From assembly GCA_016840095.1 (NCBI GenBank), contig JAEOSZ010000031.1:62001-126000 (forward strand): DNA of 64,000 bases, in the 5' to 3' direction. The translations under genes and the position numbers were made by a program. This DNA is from Candidatus Heimdallarchaeota archaeon. Lineage in GTDB: Archaea; Asgardarchaeota; Heimdallarchaeia; Heimdallarchaeales; Heimdallarchaeaceae. Shown in pieces: positions 50,152-61,765 of the stretch. The notes under the pieces are model-generated. The model was not told the origin of the DNA and ran no database searches. It worked only from the letters and a program-made list of their open reading frames with translations. Every line of letters begins with the position of its first letter. Position 1 is the first letter of the stretch.

Positions 50152-51060
50152 ATGGTTAATTTCCTCTTCATCATTTCAGTGTTTTCTGGTTTAGCTTCTT
50201 TTGCTCTTTATAACATTGGTTTTGTTCTGGAGAAGAAAGCAATAAACAAAATGTCAGAGGAAATGAAAAAGACTACAAAAGCCATGTTGAAATCGATTTT
50301 AAAGAATAAACTTTGGTTATTTGGATTACTCCTAACTATACTAAGTATAGGTTTTTACTATGTAGCATTGTTATGGGCTCCACTAAGTGCTATTGCACCT
50401 TTAGCTGGTTTTGGAATCATAGTTTTGGTTATTTTTGCTCATGTAGATCTCAAAGAAACAGTTAGAAGAATTGAACTCATTGGTTTCCTTCTAATCCTTG
50501 GAGGAATAACAGCTTCTTCATATCTAACAAGCTTAGGTGAGTCTTCTCTTTCTTGGAGTCAATGGAAAACAGTTTCTCATTCATGGCAAAGTGTAATTAT
50601 GATAGTTGGAAGTCTTATTATTGCAATATCATTTACCTTTGTACCTGTGATTTTTAAAAGAAAAATAAGACCTTTTGATATAGCAATTTTTGCTGGAATT
50701 ATTGCTGGTCTTCAGGCAATAGTAATTAAAGGAGTCACAATATGGACTTCAGAAGGAAATTGGAATACAGACATAGTTATTGCTGTAGTGTATGTTTTTG
50801 GATTCTTATTAACTGCTCTTCTGTCTACAGGAAGTCTTCAATTCGCATTTAGAGAAGGGAAGGTTTCTAGTATCATGTCAATTTACAATGGAGTCATGAC
50901 TATATTTCCAATATTCTTTGGAGGAATTCTTCTTGGAGAATGGAATTTGCTATCGGTTCTAGAGCAAACATTTCTAGGAATTTCAATTTTCGTAACTTTA
51001 GCTGGAGTAGTGATCATAAGTTTTCATCACACTCATTCTTTCACAGAAACTAGTCGATGA
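50152..51060 (+). CDS. DMT/NIPA-like membrane transporter
   Basis: The protein of about 302 residues has nine to ten hydrophobic helices. The motif LWAPLSAIAPLAGFGIIVL recalls the APL(S) pattern of NIPA/DMT-type carriers, and the second half has KVSSIMSIYNGVMTIFP. This is one of three DMT-like transporters in the window. The ATG at 50152 precedes the first helix; an upstream TTG at 50134 is also open. Its end overlaps the convergent deaminase gene by 28 bp. Confidence 0.75.
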   Translation: MVNFLFIISVFSGLASFALYNIGFVLEKKAINKMSEEMKKTTKAMLKSILKNKLWLFGLLLTILSIGFYYVALLWAPLSAIAPLAGFGIIVLVIFAHVDLKETVRRIELIGFLLILGGITASSYLTSLGESSLSWSQWKTVSHSWQSVIMIVGSLIIAISFTFVPVIFKRKIRPFDIAIFAGIIAGLQAIVIKGVTIWTSEGNWNTDIVIAVVYVFGFLLTALLSTGSLQFAFREGKVSSIMSIYNGVMTIFPIFFGGILLGEWNLLSVLEQTFLGISIFVTLAGVVIISFHHTHSFTETSR

Positions 51061-52388
51061 GTAATTTTTTCAATTTCATCTAATGACATATCAATATCTT
51101 GGTTCAATAAAATGGAATTTTCCACAATCAATTTTCCATTACTTATTACATTTGTAACATCATTTCCCTTCATTGAGTAGGCGAAGTGATTAAGAATATA
51201 ATTTTCATCAAAGTTAGGTGTTAAATGTGGTTTCCTGAGGTTGATTGTTACAATATCTGCAAATGAACCTTTCTCTAAAGTTCCAATCCCTTCCCATCCA
51301 AGAGCTTTAGCTCCACCAATAGTAGCTAATTTCAATACTTCCTCTGCTTTTATTACAACAGGATTATGTTGAAGTCCCTTGTAGTATAATGCTAGAAATC
51401 TAATTGTATCAAAAAGATCCAATGTATTGTTACTAGAGGGGCCATCAGTACCTAAGCCTATCCTGTCTATTGATTGAATCATTTTGGGAATAGGTGGCAT
51501 GTAATTTCCAAGTTTAGCATTTGAAAGTGGATTAATTGAGATTCTTGTTCCTCTTTCTTTTAATGTTTCAATGTCTTTATCGTTTACATGAATACAGTGA
51601 GCTGCAATTAGATTCTCATCTAAAACTCCAATTTTATCAAGAAATTCTACTGGTGTTTTCACATCTGGATAGGGAACATCAAATTTGTTGTTGAAACTCT
51701 TGCTATCTTCAATTTCAGTTTCAGATTCAGCTAAGTGAGTATGAATGTACACCTGAGGAATATCTGTGTTCTCAGAGTTATATTCATCTATGAATTGATG
51801 AGCAGCTTTGAAATCAGCAATATTAACAGTATAAGGAGAATGTAAAGCCAAGGAAACACGTATAGTTTCATCCATAGTATTATGATGTTCCTTAACAATT
51901 TCAATAGCCTCTTCTAAGGTAGTTATACCGGTGAGTAAAGGTGCAGCGACCATCCCTTTCAAACCTATATCAGTGATTGCTTTTGCTTCGAATTTTGGAT
52001 ACCAATACATTGAATTAACTGTTGTGACACCACTAAGTATTGATTCCATACTCCCAAGTAGAGCACCTTGATAAACGTCTTCACCAGTTAATTTAGCTTC
52101 TAAGGGCCAAATGTGATCCTCTAACCAAGTTTTTAGAGGAAGATTATCTGCAATTCCTCGAAAAATTGTCATAGCTATATGTGTGTGGCAATTTATTAAA
52201 CCTGGAATAATAAGCTGATTTTTATCTCCAATCACATCATGGCCAGACAAGTACTGTTTCATCCTAACATAAGGACCAATTTCTACTATTCTATCTTCTT
52301 CAATAATCAGTAGGGGATGCTTAACAAATTTAAGATTTAAATCTTTATCAAAGTAAATTGCCACTCTACCTTCAACAGCAAGTTCCAT
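51033..52388 (-). CDS. 5-methylthioadenosine/S-adenosylhomocysteine deaminase (amidohydrolase)
   Basis: The protein of about 451 residues has the metal motif INCHTHIAM, then HTHLAESETE, AAHCIHVND and LGTDGPSSNN, the standard set for the MTA/SAH deaminase branch of the amidohydrolase family (MtaD type). It would deaminate the products left after SAM use by methyltransferases and radical SAM enzymes, several of which are encoded nearby. The frame is open to 52436, but the ATG at 52388 (MELAVEG) is better placed 25 bp after a TATA-like aaataattt. The radical SAM gene lies just upstream on the same strand. Confidence 0.85.
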   Translation of the reverse strand: MELAVEGRVAIYFDKDLNLKFVKHPLLIIEEDRIVEIGPYVRMKQYLSGHDVIGDKNQLIIPGLINCHTHIAMTIFRGIADNLPLKTWLEDHIWPLEAKLTGEDVYQGALLGSMESILSGVTTVNSMYWYPKFEAKAITDIGLKGMVAAPLLTGITTLEEAIEIVKEHHNTMDETIRVSLALHSPYTVNIADFKAAHQFIDEYNSENTDIPQVYIHTHLAESETEIEDSKSFNNKFDVPYPDVKTPVEFLDKIGVLDENLIAAHCIHVNDKDIETLKERGTRISINPLSNAKLGNYMPPIPKMIQSIDRIGLGTDGPSSNNTLDLFDTIRFLALYYKGLQHNPVVIKAEEVLKLATIGGAKALGWEGIGTLEKGSFADIVTINLRKPHLTPNFDENYILNHFAYSMKGNDVTNVISNGKLIVENSILLNQDIDMSLDEIEKITHRLVSVKE

Positions 52389-52450
52389 AAGAGAGAAAAA
52401 GAAGAAAATTATTTGAGTGTTGTCTAAGTGATACAATTATATTTAGAAAA

Positions 52451-53512
52451 CTAAGTCAAATAAACAGGCTTGTAAGGATAAATTGGAATAACTTGATTAC
52501 ACTTAGGGCATCTACCTTTTTCTGTTAGAGAATTGAAGATAACTGAAAAAATATTCCTCTTTATCAGTAATTCAGAGCAATTGGGGCAATATGTACTTTG
52601 GAAGGGATGACCAGGGATGTTCCCCAAGTAGACGAAATTTAACCCTTCATCTTTTGCAATGGTGTGAGCTTTTTGAAGTTGTGAGATTGAAGTTTTTTCT
52701 ATCCTTGTTAAGTAGGATGGAAAGTATCTTATGAAATGAACAGGTGTGTTGACAGAAAGATTCTTTATAACATCTTGAGCGAAATCCCTAATAAACTCCT
52801 CATCATCATTGATTGTTGGAATTAATAAGTAAACGAGTTCGATATGGATGCTTCTTTGATAAGCCATCTGTAGATTTTCCCAAACATATTTGAGCTTCAT
52901 ATCTAGCAAACAATCCACAACATTTTCTGTTCCTTTAAAACTAACAGTCATCCCAGTCATTCCAGCTGAGATGAGATAATCTAAAGCTTCACCAGTCATG
53001 TAACCATTGGTAACAATCATTTTGTAATAATCATTTGTGACTAGTTGGAATACATCAACAGCAAATTCTAGAGAAAGAGTAGGCTCATTGAATGAGAAAC
53101 AAACACCATTAATTGATGGATTAAAAGAAGCATTCTCTGCAACTTTTTCTGGTGTCATTAGACTTGCATCTGTATATTTTTCTGGAGGAGGATTTTTAGT
53201 TATATCCCAATTCAAGCACCAATCGCATTCAAAGTTACATCCCCATGAACCTAAAGTCAAAGCTGTTGAACCAGGAAAATAATGATATGCAGGTTTTTTC
53301 TCAATTGGGTTTAAACTGTAACTAGAAACATCCCCATATTGAAGAGTATACAACTTTCCTTCAAAATTCCTTCTTGTTTTACATTTGCCTATTTCTCCCT
53401 CTTGAATAACACACATTCTTCTGCATGTTAAACATTGAACACTGTCACCACTCATCTTTTTGAAGAGATATGATTGTTTAATTCGTGGATCATCTGTGTT
53501 CAATGTATTCAT
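52451..53512 (-). CDS. Radical SAM enzyme, AmmeMemoRadiSam-type (third copy in window)
   Basis: The 353-residue protein has CLTCRRMC and GKCKTRRN near the start, the radical SAM motif CNFECDWC, and two C-terminal CxxC pairs (CPNC and CPKC) forming a zinc-ribbon-like tail. It is a paralogue of the protein at 3698-4738. Neither MEMO1 nor AMMECR1 genes are adjacent. It shares its strand with the MTA/SAH deaminase gene 62 bp downstream, so SAM turnover and product removal may be linked. Confidence 0.87.
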   Translation of the reverse strand: MNTLNTDDPRIKQSYLFKKMSGDSVQCLTCRRMCVIQEGEIGKCKTRRNFEGKLYTLQYGDVSSYSLNPIEKKPAYHYFPGSTALTLGSWGCNFECDWCLNWDITKNPPPEKYTDASLMTPEKVAENASFNPSINGVCFSFNEPTLSLEFAVDVFQLVTNDYYKMIVTNGYMTGEALDYLISAGMTGMTVSFKGTENVVDCLLDMKLKYVWENLQMAYQRSIHIELVYLLIPTINDDEEFIRDFAQDVIKNLSVNTPVHFIRYFPSYLTRIEKTSISQLQKAHTIAKDEGLNFVYLGNIPGHPFQSTYCPNCSELLIKRNIFSVIFNSLTEKGRCPKCNQVIPIYPYKPVYLT

Positions 53513-53623: not shown

Positions 53624-54283
53624 TTGAGTTATGTTCTAATGAAAGTTCTTGAATCTGCTCCCCATAGGTACGATAAAGGTATAAAGATTCTAACTTTAGG
53701 GAAAATTGACAAAGCATACGATAGGGTAATTGAAAACATAAAGAAACATGATAATGTTCTAGATATTGGTTGTGGAACTGGAATGTTATCTTTTAGAGCT
53801 GTTATTAAAGGTGCAACAGTAATAGGAATTGACATCAATCCAGAAATGCTAGAAATTGCAGAAAAAAGAACGGAAGAGCTCAAAGTAGAAGAGAAGATAA
53901 AATTTCTAGAAATGGGAGTTGCTGAATTAGATCGATTTGAAAATGAATCATTTGAAGTAGTTGTTAGTGGATTATGTTTTTCAGAGCTAAGTGATGATGA
54001 AATTTCTTATACATTACATCAAATTAAACGGATTTTGCATACTGAAGGTAAATTTCTCTTAGTTGATGAAACTAGGAGTAAATCAATTGTAAAGAGAATT
54101 GTAAACTTGTTTTTACGGGTACCTCTTATTATTCTAACGTACATTCTAACCCAAACCACTTCCAGAGCTTTAAAAAATATTGAGAAAGAAATAGAAGAAA
54201 CTGGCTTAAAAATCCAATCTAGAAAATCGAATTTTCTAGATAATTTTGTTGAATTAGTAATTGTTAGGAAGGATATGAAATGA
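53624..54283 (+). CDS. SAM-dependent methyltransferase coupled to the HgcA-like corrinoid protein (CpaM-like)
   Basis: The 219-residue class I methyltransferase has motif I VLDIGCGTGMLSF, motif II IGIDINPEM and the SGLCFSEL region. The C-terminal half has a hydrophobic helix (about 160-180) that may touch the membrane. Its stop overlaps the start of the corrinoid protein gene (ATGA), so the two proteins probably work together. Methyltransferases in this position have been called corrinoid-protein-associated (CpaM); that name is from memory. The start is TTG 53624 or ATG 53639. Confidence 0.75.
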   Translation: MSYVLMKVLESAPHRYDKGIKILTLGKIDKAYDRVIENIKKHDNVLDIGCGTGMLSFRAVIKGATVIGIDINPEMLEIAEKRTEELKVEEKIKFLEMGVAELDRFENESFEVVVSGLCFSELSDDEISYTLHQIKRILHTEGKFLLVDETRSKSIVKRIVNLFLRVPLIILTYILTQTTSRALKNIEKEIEETGLKIQSRKSNFLDNFVELVIVRKDMK

Positions 54284-55425
54284 GATTATTCTACTACATT
54301 TATTATGGCTTTATTACCATTCTGGAGACATTGATGAGAATGTTTCCCTTTCCTGCTAAAACAGGATATCAGAAAGTTGGGAAGCCTGATGAAGATTCTC
54401 CGGTCCTTTTAACATGTAATTTTCATTTAACTATCTTGCGATTGAAAAAAGCTACAAGAGGACTGAATTATCATCTTCTGGTTGCTAATAGCAAAGGTAT
54501 TAATGTCTGGTGTGCTGCGACAGGAGGTCATTTTAACGATCATTCTGTAATTTCAGTCATAAAGTTGAGTGGAATTGAAAATAAAGTAAATCACAAGAAA
54601 ATTATTCTTCCACAACTAGCTGCACCAGGTGTAGAAGCAAAAGAAATTCAAAAAAGGATCGGTTGGAAGGTTCTATGGGGTCCAGTTGATTTAAAAGATA
54701 TACCTGAGTTTTTTGAAACAAATTTTGAAAAAACAGATCCGATGAAAGAAGTGAAGTTTAAACTAATCCAAAGAATTGAGATGGCAATTATGTGGTCATT
54801 TCTTGCAAGTATAGTAGTAATGCCAATATGGGGACCATTGTTTAAACTTGAAGCAGCATTCATGTTAGCACAGATATTCTTCATTTACTTGCTATCACTA
54901 ATTTCGTTTCCAATATTTGAAAAAATCTTTCAAAAAGAAGTTGAAAAGAAGAAGGCTTTTTTCACAGTTGGTAATCTTATAGTTGTTCTTATCAATCTCA
55001 TTTATGCAACAATTGGCGTAGTATTGTATGTGATTGTTTATCAAAAAGATTATTCTTGGATTTTACTTAGGTGGTGTATTGTCTCGTTCCTATTGGTTCT
55101 ATTAGCAAATATGGAACTTAAAGGATCAACTCCAACATACAAGAGTGATTCTCATGCTGACAAACTGTTTGATGTAGGGATAGATTTTGAGAGATGCAGG
55201 GGAACAGGAATCTGTATTGATGTTTGTCCAAGAAACTGTTATAAGATGGATACGGAGAAGAATAAAATTACCATGCCTAGGCAAAAATATTGTGTTCAGT
55301 GTGGGGCTTGTATTGTTCAATGTCCATTTGACGCTCTTTATTTCATTAATAGAAAAGGAGATACAATCAACCCTAGTACAGTAAGAAAATTCAAGCTAAA
55401 TCTAATGGGTAAGAGAGTTGACTAA
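54280..55425 (+). CDS. Fused HgcA-HgcB-like corrinoid/ferredoxin membrane protein
   Basis: The 381-residue protein begins with a HgcA-type corrinoid-binding region containing the cap-helix motif INVWCAA (Cys78, the cobalt-ligand position) and later ILPQLAAPGVEA. Four membrane helices follow (about 168-278). The C-terminus is a two-cluster ferredoxin like HgcB: a first set C306-C312-C316 with Thr309 where a cysteine is usual, and a complete second set C338-C341-C344-C348. The canonical NVWCAAGKG reads NVWCAATGG. HgcA and HgcB methylate mercury as separate proteins; fused forms exist in other archaea and are not all Hg methylators. The native role is likely corrinoid methyl transfer. Confidence 0.85.
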   Translation: MRLFYYIYYGFITILETLMRMFPFPAKTGYQKVGKPDEDSPVLLTCNFHLTILRLKKATRGLNYHLLVANSKGINVWCAATGGHFNDHSVISVIKLSGIENKVNHKKIILPQLAAPGVEAKEIQKRIGWKVLWGPVDLKDIPEFFETNFEKTDPMKEVKFKLIQRIEMAIMWSFLASIVVMPIWGPLFKLEAAFMLAQIFFIYLLSLISFPIFEKIFQKEVEKKKAFFTVGNLIVVLINLIYATIGVVLYVIVYQKDYSWILLRWCIVSFLLVLLANMELKGSTPTYKSDSHADKLFDVGIDFERCRGTGICIDVCPRNCYKMDTEKNKITMPRQKYCVQCGACIVQCPFDALYFINRKGDTINPSTVRKFKLNLMGKRVD

Positions 55426-57418: not shown

Positions 57419-60400
57419 ATGCTGAAGAATAAGAAATTAGTATTTTACATTTTCCTAGTTTTAGTTCTGCTGCCATCTTCTTTATCTACAGCACAAACAA
57501 CTGAAACAGAAGAACTAATCTATCTTACCAATATCATAGATAATGGTGGGATACTAGAATCTGTTCCTTTGATAGACAATGAAGGTAATCTACATGCATT
57601 TGTACATGTAAGAAATTCTGAAAAAGATAGCTTAATCCATTTATCATTCCTTGATGGTGAGATTGAGATGGAAACTATTGAAGAACAAGCTTCAGGTCTT
57701 ACTATACATTATGCTTACACTTCTGATATTAATCTAGGTTTAGTTTACTCAATAGAAGATAATCTAGGTTCATTAACTTTTTATCATTTTATTGCTGGAA
57801 AATTTCTACATAACACATATGAATTCTTTTGGATATCAGGGAGTGATTATACTGGTGAATATGTAACATATTTTGAATTCCAATTCATAGATGGAATCCT
57901 TCATGGTTTTCATAACATGTGGGATCATATTGATAAGGTTAACATGACTATGTACCACTACTACGGCTTTTTGTCTTTTGACTCTGAAAGCTTCGAGTTA
58001 GATTATCCAGTACCATTTGTAACTGATACAATGGATATTACCTTAGATGAAACAGGTCAAATCTGGTATATTCATAGATTAGATCAATCTGCTTTTGGCA
58101 TCGGTACATATATTTTAGATAACAATACCATGTACATTCAACAAGATAGAACCTTCAGTAATGTTTTATCACCTGTTGAAAAAATAGATGTAAGAGCAAA
58201 TGCCAATGGTCTTTCTTATGTCTTTACGAATCCACTTTCCTTATACTGGGGTTCAATTAATAGTACAACAATTGAAGAAAATAAAATTACTACATTTTTT
58301 GATGATCCTATTGACTCATTTTATTTCAATAATGGTTTGGCACAATCAGTAATTATTGCTGATCAAGTTGATGATGATTACGTAAATCTTTACTTCTATC
58401 AATATGTAAGTGGGAATTGGAAATTCTCTTCAATAAACTCTCTGTATCAAATTACAGAAGAATCTTTTTCTATTTTTCTAACAGCAATAGACTATATTGT
58501 TCTTTATAACTTTGAAATCTCTACAGAGGATTTTAAACCTGGCCCCTCTCAAAAATATCGAGAAGAAGAAGCTTCTGGACTTTTCATACTTACATCTCTT
58601 TCATTTGATCTTGAAACGTATGCTGATGGATTAACTGCATATAATGTCATAAAAGAATTTTTCACTAAAAAATGGTATTTTCTATTAATTGCTATTATTG
58701 GTGTTGTACTGTTAGGTGTTATTATCTGGCTTTATTTAAGACGTAGAGGAGGAGATATTAAGGAGTTTTTAACCGATGAGCAGGTAGGACAACATCCAAA
58801 GATTATACTTGTTTTACTAAATATCTGGAGAAGAATTTCAAATGGTTTTAGTACAGTAACTACAATTTGGTTTTCAAACAAGAAGAGATCAATTCTTACT
58901 TTAGCAGGATTTGTTATAACCGGATATTTACTCTGTTCTGCAATAATTATAGCACAATCAGAAGAATCTGCAATGATTAAAGCTTATGATCGCGCATTTC
59001 CTCTTTTCTCAGATAAGCTTCCATCAGCTCAGCTAGAAACATCTTTTCAGTCAAGTTTTGTTGGAGGATTAAATGTATCTTCTTCTTATGGAACTGACGC
59101 AGAACAAGCAATACTGAATCTCTACGATGGATTAGTCATTGAGAAATATCTCTCCGGTGTTCAAACTAGTTATTGGACAAATACGAAAATTTATTCACCC
59201 TCATATCCCGTTTACCTATCATACCATTTTGTATCTCTACCAGATTCATGTGATGATTTTATTGATTCTATGTTAGTTGAAGGGAGAACACCAATAAATG
59301 ATTCAGAAGTTATATTGGAACAGAGGCTTGCAGATTTAACTCATACAAGTGTCAATGATACATTGAGCATAGTTGCTTCTACTGATAGTCCAGGAGATGT
59401 ACATAATTACCTCCTAAACACAACTGTTGTTGGAATTTATGCTCAAATAAATACAGCACAAGCAAAACGTACTGCAGCTTATTTTGGCGTCCCTTATGAT
59501 ATCTATACTCTTGCTTCAGATAATTCATACATTATTACTAAACAAAGTATCTTTTTTGATATCATTTCTAAAGGTGGAAAGATGAATCTTCTCCTAAGGG
59601 GATATTATCAACTGGAGATGAACTTCGATGAATTCAATGTTGCTGAAAGGAATGAAATATTAGCCGAGCAAGATATTTTAGCAGGAAGAGTGTTTTCATT
59701 TGCATTTGATGATTCATCAATTGTTAGAGTAAAAGATGAAATCGCGGATTTCTTTGAAGAGTTCAATACTTATTATCTTAATAATATGGCTCGATTATTG
59801 ATTTTTGCAATACCTGCAGTGCTACTATCAATTTTCATGGTATTTGAATCTTCAGAACTATTTTCTACTAGTTATGAGCAAGAAATGGAAATTATGAGAA
59901 GCAGGGGTATAAAAACGAGGAAGATTTTTTCTACTTACCTCGCAATAAGAGTTATCGAAATTATAATCGCAAGTTTATTTAGTTTTGCAATTGCAGTAGC
60001 AACGGCAGTTCCCCTAATTAGAATTAATGGTTTTATAAGATTCACAAATACTGATACTAACTTAACTATAGGAAATGTTCCAGGAATACTAGGAATAGTG
60101 ATTGCATTCTTATTCATAATTTCTATTCCAAGAATTATTATTCTAGTTAGGAGAAAGAAAAAGATCGAAAAAGCACCACCTGTGAAGAAGAAATCTCACA
60201 AGAGATTAGACAATAGAGGATTGGTAAAAGCTGCAGCAAAGACTACTAGCAAAGATATTGCAAAATCTTCTATTACAGGTGTAACAGAAATATCTGAAGA
60301 AACCGCACTAAATTCAGTTATTGCATTCTTCTCTATCATTATTAAGTACAAATTAATTTCTTGGAGAGATGTATTCTTCCTCATTTTGGGATCTGGAACA

Positions 60401-61765
60401 GTAGTCTTATTCTATAACCGTTCAGTTACTTCGTATTATGATGCAACTCAGGGGAGTTTTACTCTTAATCTCTTCTTAACAATAACTGGAGCAATAATTA
60501 TCTTGATGGGGGCATTGCCTTTCATAATCAAAGTTCTTGGACTAATATTGAGAGCAGTGAGTAATGTAGTTTGGAGAGCTAAGAAAAGTAAATTCAATTT
60601 CTCAATAGCTGAAATTGGAAAAGATATCAGGTACTTCGAAAATATCACTCTGATTTTCCTATTAGTTGTTCTAATTATAATACCTGTACTCATCGTACCT
60701 TATTCAAAAGAATCAACTCTGACAGAACAAGCTTATTTCATCAATGGTTCAGATGTTAAAATTGAAAATTGGGCAGATTTAGATGGAATTACAGAGGAAG
60801 ACATCAACGATTTGCCACAAGTGAAAGAGTATACTCACATTGAAGTTCATACTGTATACAATACGATGTTTAGGTATACGCGTTTAATTGTAGTAAATAC
60901 GACGTCATTCTTGGATACAGTAGAGATTCCTCCAGAATATATGTCAAATGTAAGGTGGAACCAAATTAAACAGCTTAATGCAAATACAACAATGGTATCA
61001 GAAGCAATGTATACAGATTATTATTTAGGATTAGGAGATAGATACGAATTCGCTCATCCGGATATACTAGGGTTAAGGCACTCTTTAACTGTTATTGCTC
61101 AATTTGATATGTTTCCGATGCATTATTTCGAAGAAGATTCTGATGATAGGGAATATACAATGATTATGTCGACAGAAGCTTTTGAAATCTTAGAAGACAT
61201 CATAGTCAGAAGATTAAAAACTAGTGATGAAATAATAATAAAAACCCAAAACAGCATAGCTGCACAAACAGTTAAAAATAAACTATTTGAAGAAGACCCA
61301 GATATCAAGGCTAAAACAATTGAAGATGTAAAAGATAGTCTGAAAACACCTTTGTATAACATCTTCATTATAGAAATGATTCTATCACTTTTTGTAGCCT
61401 TAGTTGTATTAATGTTTTCAACATTTACAACAGCAATAAAGATTCTTGAGAAACGTGTAATAAAACACGATATTATGAAAAAGATGGGAATAAACACAAC
61501 GAAAATAATTAACATGACGACGATTCAAACGACAATAGCAGCAATCGTTCCTGCATTAATATTAGGAGCAGCAGGAGGAATAGTAGCTGTAAATCCAACA
61601 TTGAAACAATTAGAATATGGAGCACAACAGTTCTCGATGCATGTGAATTATCCTGTAGTGATGTTAGTAGTTTTATTCGTAGGAATACCCTCACTGATAT
61701 ACATAAGTCTAAGGTTTATCCTGAAACGGGAATTTGCAAAATATGCACCAACTATGATGGAGTAG
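57419..61765 (+). CDS. Giant FtsX/MacB-type permease with an extracellular sensor-like domain
   Basis: The 1448-residue protein has a signal peptide and an extracellular beta-rich region of about 390 residues, then one membrane helix (about 417-440). Two FtsX-type units follow: helices near 490, 785, 835 and 895, and then near 1005, 1040, 1085 and 1310-1430, with large external loops between (about 515-780 and 1110-1300). The duplicated FtsX layout matches transporters that drive work outside the cell rather than import. The ATPase gene lies four bases downstream, so they form one complex. Candidate roles are lipoprotein, peptide or envelope-stress handling; no cargo is shown. Confidence 0.8.
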   Translation: MLKNKKLVFYIFLVLVLLPSSLSTAQTTETEELIYLTNIIDNGGILESVPLIDNEGNLHAFVHVRNSEKDSLIHLSFLDGEIEMETIEEQASGLTIHYAYTSDINLGLVYSIEDNLGSLTFYHFIAGKFLHNTYEFFWISGSDYTGEYVTYFEFQFIDGILHGFHNMWDHIDKVNMTMYHYYGFLSFDSESFELDYPVPFVTDTMDITLDETGQIWYIHRLDQSAFGIGTYILDNNTMYIQQDRTFSNVLSPVEKIDVRANANGLSYVFTNPLSLYWGSINSTTIEENKITTFFDDPIDSFYFNNGLAQSVIIADQVDDDYVNLYFYQYVSGNWKFSSINSLYQITEESFSIFLTAIDYIVLYNFEISTEDFKPGPSQKYREEEASGLFILTSLSFDLETYADGLTAYNVIKEFFTKKWYFLLIAIIGVVLLGVIIWLYLRRRGGDIKEFLTDEQVGQHPKIILVLLNIWRRISNGFSTVTTIWFSNKKRSILTLAGFVITGYLLCSAIIIAQSEESAMIKAYDRAFPLFSDKLPSAQLETSFQSSFVGGLNVSSSYGTDAEQAILNLYDGLVIEKYLSGVQTSYWTNTKIYSPSYPVYLSYHFVSLPDSCDDFIDSMLVEGRTPINDSEVILEQRLADLTHTSVNDTLSIVASTDSPGDVHNYLLNTTVVGIYAQINTAQAKRTAAYFGVPYDIYTLASDNSYIITKQSIFFDIISKGGKMNLLLRGYYQLEMNFDEFNVAERNEILAEQDILAGRVFSFAFDDSSIVRVKDEIADFFEEFNTYYLNNMARLLIFAIPAVLLSIFMVFESSELFSTSYEQEMEIMRSRGIKTRKIFSTYLAIRVIEIIIASLFSFAIAVATAVPLIRINGFIRFTNTDTNLTIGNVPGILGIVIAFLFIISIPRIIILVRRKKKIEKAPPVKKKSHKRLDNRGLVKAAAKTTSKDIAKSSITGVTEISEETALNSVIAFFSIIIKYKLISWRDVFFLILGSGTVVLFYNRSVTSYYDATQGSFTLNLFLTITGAIIILMGALPFIIKVLGLILRAVSNVVWRAKKSKFNFSIAEIGKDIRYFENITLIFLLVVLIIIPVLIVPYSKESTLTEQAYFINGSDVKIENWADLDGITEEDINDLPQVKEYTHIEVHTVYNTMFRYTRLIVVNTTSFLDTVEIPPEYMSNVRWNQIKQLNANTTMVSEAMYTDYYLGLGDRYEFAHPDILGLRHSLTVIAQFDMFPMHYFEEDSDDREYTMIMSTEAFEILEDIIVRRLKTSDEIIIKTQNSIAAQTVKNKLFEEDPDIKAKTIEDVKDSLKTPLYNIFIIEMILSLFVALVVLMFSTFTTAIKILEKRVIKHDIMKKMGINTTKIINMTTIQTTIAAIVPALILGAAGGIVAVNPTLKQLEYGAQQFSMHVNYPVVMLVVLFVGIPSLIYISLRFILKREFAKYAPTMME

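What the first reader, a model, noticed from the sequence alone, without database searches (positions are those of the whole stretch)
53624..55425. Fused HgcA-HgcB-like corrinoid protein translationally coupled to a methyltransferase
The HgcA cap helix (INVWCAA, Cys78), four membrane helices and an HgcB-like ferredoxin lie in one chain, overlapping by four bases the gene of a SAM methyltransferase. Two departures from the canonical proteins are visible: NVWCAATGG instead of NVWCAAGKG, and Thr309 in place of the second cysteine of ferredoxin cluster I. The methyltransferase may load or repair the corrinoid, and the ferredoxin may reduce cobalt. The system could reveal the native, non-mercury function of the family.
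Basis: partly seen in the sequence, partly recalled or inferred. Interest (0 to 1): 0.78.

Follow-up and report, generated by a model that had tools for sequence, protein, structure and literature searches.

The report
Methyltransferase-paired HgcAB-like corrinoid fusion protein
An Asgard archaeon carries a two-gene module, a vitamin-B12 membrane protein related to the mercury-methylating enzyme plus a methyltransferase, that probably uses S-adenosylmethionine to methylate something other than mercury; both protein families are already catalogued, but their obligate pairing makes the unknown original job of this family testable.

Summary
A 219-aa SAM methyltransferase gene overlaps by 4 nt a 381-aa gene for a one-chain HgcA-HgcB-like protein, in a Heimdallarchaeota-type MAG. 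Both are catalogued NCBIfam families (HgcAB_like fusion protein; CpaM, corrinoid protein-associated methyltransferase), so the locus is a new member of a known kind. The two 'departures' are clade traits: a cap other than NVWCAAGKG marks all CpaM-linked HgcAs, and the missing cluster-I cysteine is shared by a clade of bacteria and archaea, where a cysteine four residues after the motif usually accompanies it. New here: CpaM and this HgcA type are nearly inseparable in the phylum (103 of 111 CpaM genes adjacent, 7 more cut off at contig ends), while 0 of 17 canonical HgcA loci have CpaM; the three modules occur split or fused in four ways. The window protein lacks Cys73 and the C-terminal cysteines that Hg methylation needs, so it is probably not an Hg methylator. 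Relatives with cysteine tails often sit in arsenic operons. Best explanation: CpaM charges the cobalt of the HgcA domain from SAM, the ferredoxin reduces cobalt, an unknown acceptor takes the methyl group. Transfer direction and acceptor are inferred, not shown.

The parts
53624..54283 (+). CpaM, class I SAM-dependent methyltransferase (219 aa, TTG start)
   Evidence: NCBIfam NF043040 274.5 bits, cut-off 180; invariant GxGxG, D70, S120-E121, D148-E149 and no invariant Cys in 22 homologues
54280..55425 (+). HgcAB-like fusion protein (381 aa)
   Evidence: NCBIfam NF043039 427.7 bits, cut-off 285; AF2 model pLDDT 93; Foldseek best hit HgcAB model 9a0b
54280..54283 (+). 4-nt start/stop overlap (ATGA) between the two genes
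   Evidence: sequence; -4 spacing recurs in many relatives, bacterial and archaeal
54346..54711 (+). corrinoid-binding domain, residues 23-144
   Evidence: Pfam PF03599 E 4.8e-18; 1.6-2.0 A over about 127 columns with CFeSP structures
54502..54528 (+). cap helix NVWCAATGG with Cys78, the predicted lower cobalt ligand
   Evidence: N75, V76, W77, C78, G82 invariant in 50 aligned proteins
54763..55116 (+). membrane domain, residues 162-279 (four long helices)
   Evidence: model helices 162-187, 189-208, 230-254, 259-279; hydropathy
55171..55347 (+). HgcB-like dicluster ferredoxin, residues 298-356
   Evidence: Pfam Fer4 / Fer4_7; Cys 306, 312, 316, 338, 341, 344, 348
55204..55206 (+). Thr309 in place of the second cysteine of the first cluster motif
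   Evidence: sequence; T, A, V, R or I in 30 of 90 family rows, clade-wide
55237..55239 (+). Cys320 (CPRNC), accompanies loss of the second cysteine in relatives
   Evidence: 27 of 31 proteins without the second Cys have it, against 7 of 62 with the second Cys
55324..55422 (+). C-terminal tail without any cysteine after the second cluster motif (Cys348 is the last)
   Evidence: Cys positions; canonical HgcB needs Cys73 and a C-terminal Cys (PMC7305189)

Best explanation
A two-gene methyl-transfer module. CpaM transfers a methyl group from SAM to Co(I) of the corrinoid held Cys-on by Cys78 in the HgcA-like domain at the membrane. The fused ferredoxin, whose intact second cluster lies nearer the cobalt if the HgcAB model applies, returns Co(II)/Co(III) to Co(I). 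The methyl group then goes to an acceptor that is probably not Hg(II) in this subfamily. Related subtypes with cysteine-rich tails sit in arsenic operons, so a metal(loid) acceptor is the best guess for the family; for the tail-less window type the acceptor is open. Shown: gene structure, domain content, intact SAM motif, near-obligate CpaM-HgcA pairing, natural fusions, missing Hg-handling cysteines. Inferred: corrinoid occupancy, direction of methyl transfer, electron role, acceptor.
For: In the window's phylum 103 of 111 CpaM hits lie within 4 kb of an HgcA-type hit; 7 of the other 8 lie at contig ends where the partner would be cut off. In all fetched loci with enough upstream sequence CpaM is adjacent or fused in 154 of 159 CpaM-type loci (some loci counted twice) and in 0 of 17 canonical HgcA loci. 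Three modules in four arrangements, including single chains CpaM-HgcA-HgcB and CpaM-HgcA. No other gene is conserved beside the pair across lineages. SAM motif invariant. SAM is the methyl donor of purified canonical HgcAB (PMC11588087). The host has no other CFeSP-type protein, so a Wood-Ljungdahl donor is unlikely, and has a corrinoid adenosyltransferase and other B12-binding proteins. A natural fusion folds with high confidence in one chain (pLDDT 92, pTM 0.90).
Against: Canonical HgcAB takes the methyl group from SAM without a separate methyltransferase, so CpaM may do something else. CpaM's nearest solved structures include enzymes that methylate phosphatidylethanolamine or quinones. The own genome is 89% complete, so absence of CFeSP is not certain. 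No corrinoid or activity data exist.
Confidence: 0.5

Rival explanations
1. CpaM does not touch cobalt. It methylates a membrane lipid, quinone or the product of the HgcA-like reaction, and the two enzymes act one after the other on the same substrate.
For: Nearest folds include phosphatidylethanolamine N-methyltransferase and Coq5; UbiE-type profiles match; CpaM has a conserved hydrophobic segment around P167-L-x-x-x-T-Y-x-x-T-Q-T-T; canonical HgcAB needs no methyltransferase to use SAM (PMC11588087).
Against: CpaM is inseparable from the corrinoid protein and is fused next to its corrinoid domain in several lineages; no conserved third gene points to a lipid or quinone pathway.
Confidence: 0.25
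2. It is a mercury methylator like canonical HgcAB.
For: Homology to HgcA and HgcB, conserved cap-helix Cys, same fold.
Against: Below NCBIfam cut-offs for HgcA (164.9 < 275) and HgcB (44.1 < 99). No cysteine after Cys348, whereas Cys73 and a C-terminal Cys of HgcB are needed for Hg methylation (PMC7305189). Two organisms with fused HgcAB, P. furiosus and M. methylutens, make no MeHg (PMC5893877).
Confidence: 0.05
3. It is an arsenic (or antimony) methylation and resistance system throughout the family, the window type included.
For: ArsR or ACR3 genes lie within 1.6 kb of 33 of 58 CpaM-type loci with cysteine-tailed ferredoxins; ArsC follows in several Lokiarchaeia loci.
Against: 0 of 67 tail-less loci, the window's kind, have ArsR/ACR3 within 1.6 kb, and none lies beside the window pair. 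The tail/ars link rests on only 1-2 independent contrasts. CpaM has no ArsM-like invariant cysteine.
Confidence: 0.12
4. The locus is a decaying remnant, as suggested by the lost cluster cysteine and patchy distribution.
For: Only part of the window's own genus carries it.
Against: Open frames, invariant catalytic residues and 75-83% identical close relatives; cysteine loss is old, clade-wide and accompanied by Cys320.
Confidence: 0.03

Closest known systems
HgcAB-like fusion protein (NCBIfam NF043039; fused HgcAB of Pyrococcus furiosus, Kosmotoga, Methanococcoides, Atribacteria)
   Same: Same domain order, score well above the family cut-off, same cap type; the family's members in the phylum lie beside CpaM
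   Different: Nothing that defines a new family; the window member belongs to the subgroup without the second cluster-I Cys and without tail Cys
CpaM, corrinoid protein-associated methyltransferase (NCBIfam NF043040)
   Same: Above cut-off, adjacent to the corrinoid protein
   Different: None found; the function of the family is not established in what I could read
Canonical mercury-methylating HgcA and HgcB
   Same: Corrinoid domain, cap-helix Cys, membrane domain, dicluster ferredoxin
   Different: Fused; cap NVWCAATGG not NVWCAAGKG; CpaM present (absent at all 17 canonical loci); no Cys73 or C-terminal Cys; cluster A has three Cys
Corrinoid iron-sulfur protein large subunit (AcsC/CdhE)
   Same: Homologous corrinoid-binding domain
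   Different: No TIM barrel, no N-terminal Fe-S domain; membrane domain and ferredoxin instead; cap helix has a Cys
7Fe ferredoxins (e.g. Bacillus schlegelii, Azotobacter FdI)
   Same: Three-Cys first site and CPxxC, matching the window's CRGTGIC...CPRNC (PDB 1bc6 among hits; the detailed parallel is from my own knowledge)
   Different: Spacing of the first motif differs; cluster content of the window protein unknown

Membership tests
HgcAB-like fusion protein (NF043039) | Profile score above curated cut-off | tested here: met
   427.7 bits, cut-off 285
HgcAB-like fusion protein (NF043039) | Corrinoid domain, membrane domain and ferredoxin in one chain | tested here: met
CpaM (NF043040) | Profile score above cut-off and gene beside a corrinoid protein | tested here: met
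   274.5 bits, cut-off 180; 4-nt overlap
CpaM (NF043040) | Methylates the corrinoid protein | not testable with these tools
   no activity data
Mercury-methylating HgcA (NF040863) | Profile score above cut-off | tested here: not met
   164.9 bits, cut-off 275
Mercury-methylating HgcA (NF040863) | Cap helix NVWCAAGKG | tested here: not met
   NVWCAATGG; Cys conserved, GKG not
Mercury methylation ferredoxin HgcB (NF040864) | Profile score above cut-off | tested here: not met
   44.1 bits, cut-off 99
Mercury methylation ferredoxin HgcB (NF040864) | Two complete CxxCxxCxxxCP motifs | tested here: not met
   first motif CxxTxxCxxxCP
Mercury methylation ferredoxin HgcB (NF040864) | Cys73 equivalent and C-terminal Cys | tested here: not met
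   no Cys after residue 348; requirement from PMC7305189
CFeSP large subunit | TIM barrel plus N-terminal Fe-S domain | tested here: not met
   only the C-terminal corrinoid domain matches
Arsenite methyltransferase ArsM | Conserved As-binding cysteines | tested here: not met
   no invariant Cys in 22 CpaM proteins
Cobalamin-binding protein | Bound corrinoid in purified protein | not testable with these tools
   homology only

The most novel reading that the evidence does not exclude
CpaM-HgcA-HgcB is the basal form of the HgcA family: a SAM-charged membrane corrinoid machine for metal(loid) methylation, from which canonical mercury-methylating HgcAB arose by losing CpaM. In favour: canonical HgcA groups with the Asgard CpaM-HgcA type found in arsenic operons (support 96/91, rooted on CFeSP). 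Not decisive: a tree that keeps all CpaM-linked forms together is not rejected (AU p 0.395).
Probability: 0.2. Interest if true: 0.85.

Novelty: new member of a known kind. Interest (0 to 1): 0.5.

Why it matters
The original job of the HgcA family is an open question with environmental weight. A near-obligate SAM methyltransferase partner, natural fusions of all three modules and arsenic-operon placement of some subtypes turn it into a biochemical question that can be tested with purified proteins. They also fit the recent finding that SAM, not methyl-folate, feeds HgcA. Databases that count HgcA-like sequences as mercury methylators should set this subgroup apart.

Tried and rejected
Third conserved partner: neighbour clustering over 79 named loci gave none beyond CpaM; the radical-SAM and amidohydrolase genes beside the window pair recur only in close relatives, plus one Lokiarchaeote amidohydrolase. 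Wood-Ljungdahl remnant: no other PF03599 hit in the genome. ArsM-like CpaM: no invariant Cys. Canonical HgcA shown to be nested inside CpaM forms: suggested by the tree, not upheld by the AU test. Tail cysteines and ars genes as a significant correlation: strong in raw counts but only 1-2 independent contrasts. Cys320 as compensation for the lost Cys: strong raw co-occurrence, few independent events. Haft and Gwadz 2023, Lin et al. 2023 and Gionfriddo et al. 2023 were not in the library, so earlier reports of some of these patterns may exist. The literature search for CpaM found nothing relevant.

Full report
WHAT IS THERE. Two genes on the + strand overlap by four bases: 53624..54283 (219 aa, TTG start) and 54280..55425 (381 aa). 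The first is a class I SAM methyltransferase, the second a single chain with a CFeSP-type corrinoid domain (Pfam CdhD, E 4.8e-18), a membrane domain and a dicluster ferredoxin. NCBIfam already has both: HgcAB_like fusion protein (427.7 bits, cut-off 285) and CpaM, corrinoid protein-associated methyltransferase (274.5, cut-off 180). The chain is below the cut-offs for mercury-methylating HgcA (164.9 < 275) and HgcB (44.1 < 99). An AlphaFold model (pLDDT 93, pTM 0.88) matches the published HgcAB integrative model best and CFeSP at 1.6-2.0 A over the corrinoid domain. The window is part of a 3.44-Mb MAG; the nearest named relatives (L039 and L042, 75 and 82% identical) are Heimdallarchaeota/Asgard MAGs.

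THE DEPARTURES ARE CLADE TRAITS. The invariant part of the cap is N-V-W-C plus a glycine at position 82. Canonical loci read NVWCAAGKG; all CpaM-linked ones read other letters after NVWC. The second cysteine of cluster motif I is replaced by A, T, V, R or I in 30 of 90 family rows, from Heimdallarchaeia, Desulfobacterota, Chloroflexota, Aminicenantes and others. In that state a cysteine four residues after the motif (Cys320 here, CPRNC) is present in 27 of 31 proteins, against 7 of 62 that keep the second cysteine. This resembles the 7Fe ferredoxins (1bc6 is among the PDB hits; the comparison of ligands is my own knowledge), so a [3Fe-4S] or re-ligated cluster is likely. By the cluster assignment of PMC7305189 the affected cluster is the one distant from cobalt, and the proximal one keeps all four cysteines.

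CpaM AND THIS HgcA TYPE GO TOGETHER. In 224-228 genomes of the phylum, 103 of 111 CpaM hits lie within 4 kb of an HgcA-type hit. Seven of the other eight are at contig ends where the partner would be missing, and one is a broken fragment. Over all fetched loci with at least 600 nt upstream, or with a fused CpaM, CpaM is adjacent or fused in 154 of 159 CpaM-type loci (about a dozen are duplicates between searches) and in none of 17 canonical loci. Exceptions include L079 and L090 (another N-terminal membrane domain) and L084. The modules occur as (i) CpaM | HgcA-HgcB as in the window, (ii) CpaM-HgcA-HgcB in one chain (L118, L119, L123, L080, L086, L088, L091), (iii) CpaM-HgcA | HgcB, (iv) all separate. 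A natural fusion (L119, 640 aa) folds with pLDDT 92 and pTM 0.90. No other neighbour is conserved across lineages, so the pair is a self-contained module. It is patchy even within the window's genus, and the window's clade mixes archaea and many bacterial phyla, which points to horizontal spread.

ARSENIC CONTEXT OF RELATIVES. Type iii loci of Lokiarchaeia and relatives often carry ArsR (30 loci), an ACR3 arsenite permease (22), a small Cys protein (18) and ArsC (6) beside CpaM-HgcA and HgcB (NCBIfam ACR3 274.5 bits, just under its cut-off of 282.8; ArsR above cut-off; ArsC family 136 bits, below its cut-off of 174). Some bacterial type i loci with cysteine tails (L076, L081, L089 and others) have an ArsR gene upstream. 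Counting ferredoxin tails: 33 of 58 CpaM-type loci with at least two tail cysteines have ArsR or ACR3 within 1.6 kb, against 0 of 67 with none or one. This rests on few independent events (1-2 contrasts in favour, none against). Ars genes near canonical hgcAB are published (PMC7438021, PMC10349881). The window type has no tail cysteine and no ars neighbour, so the arsenic inference does not carry over to it directly.

WHY PROBABLY NOT MERCURY. Hg methylation needs Cys73 of HgcB and at least one C-terminal cysteine (PMC7305189); the window protein has none after Cys348. Two organisms with fused HgcAB were tested and made no MeHg (PMC5893877).

MECHANISM. Purified canonical HgcAB takes its methyl group from SAM through methylcobalamin with a Co-thiolate bond (PMC11588087). 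CpaM keeps the SAM-binding motif and has no ArsM-like cysteine site. The genome has no other CFeSP-type protein (genome 89% complete) but has a corrinoid adenosyltransferase and B12-binding proteins. The simplest reading is SAM to Co(I) by CpaM, reduction by the ferredoxin, transfer to an unknown acceptor. The main rival is that CpaM acts on a lipid, quinone or the product; its nearest folds include a phosphatidylethanolamine methyltransferase and Coq5.

EVOLUTION. Rooted on CFeSP, canonical HgcA groups with the Asgard type iii core (96/91) inside CpaM-linked forms, but a tree with all CpaM-linked forms together is not rejected (AU p 0.395). Loss of CpaM on the way to mercury methylators is therefore possible, not shown.

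VERDICT. Real, well-bounded and a member of catalogued families. Its value is as a handle on the native function of HgcA, with a predicted non-Hg, SAM-charged chemistry.

Noticed in passing
L126, L143, L147, L151, L158, L162, L186 and other L132-L191 loci: Asgard (Lokiarchaeia-type) arsenic operons: ArsR, ACR3 permease, CpaM-HgcA fusion, HgcB with GCGCxW and terminal CC, small Cys protein, ArsC. Possibly a more interesting case than the window itself.
   Followed up: partly
L013, L014, L015, L016 (C-terminus of the HgcAB-like protein): Close Heimdall relatives of the window protein end in CCLxCKIS-like cysteine clusters that the window protein lacks.
   Followed up: no
L026-L037 and L118, L119, L123: Lokiarchaeia-type and single-chain forms have a second cysteine in the cap (NVWCGACG, NVWCxxCG) and keep the cluster-I cysteine; the window clade lacks both.
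   Followed up: no
window 52451-53512 (-): AmmeMemoRadiSam-family radical SAM enzyme divergent from the pair; a homologue is also found beside the pair in Heimdall relatives (L017, L039, L040, L041), not elsewhere.
   Followed up: partly
window 51033-52436 (-); L077:579-2006 (+): Amidohydrolase of the SAH/MTA/5'-deoxyadenosine deaminase kind near CpaM in Heimdall loci and directly upstream of CpaM in one Lokiarchaeote; could recycle SAH.
   Followed up: partly
L079, L090: HgcAB-like proteins with NVWCSSLSG cap, an extra N-terminal membrane domain and no CpaM; an ArsR-like gene lies near L079.
   Followed up: no
L076, L081, L089: Bacterial operon ArsR, two small membrane/secreted proteins without Pfam hit, CpaM, HgcAB-like with CSCPxC tail, shared by MAGs of unrelated phyla.
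   Followed up: partly
window 57419-61765 (+): 1448-aa membrane protein with weak FtsX-like permease matches only.
   Followed up: no
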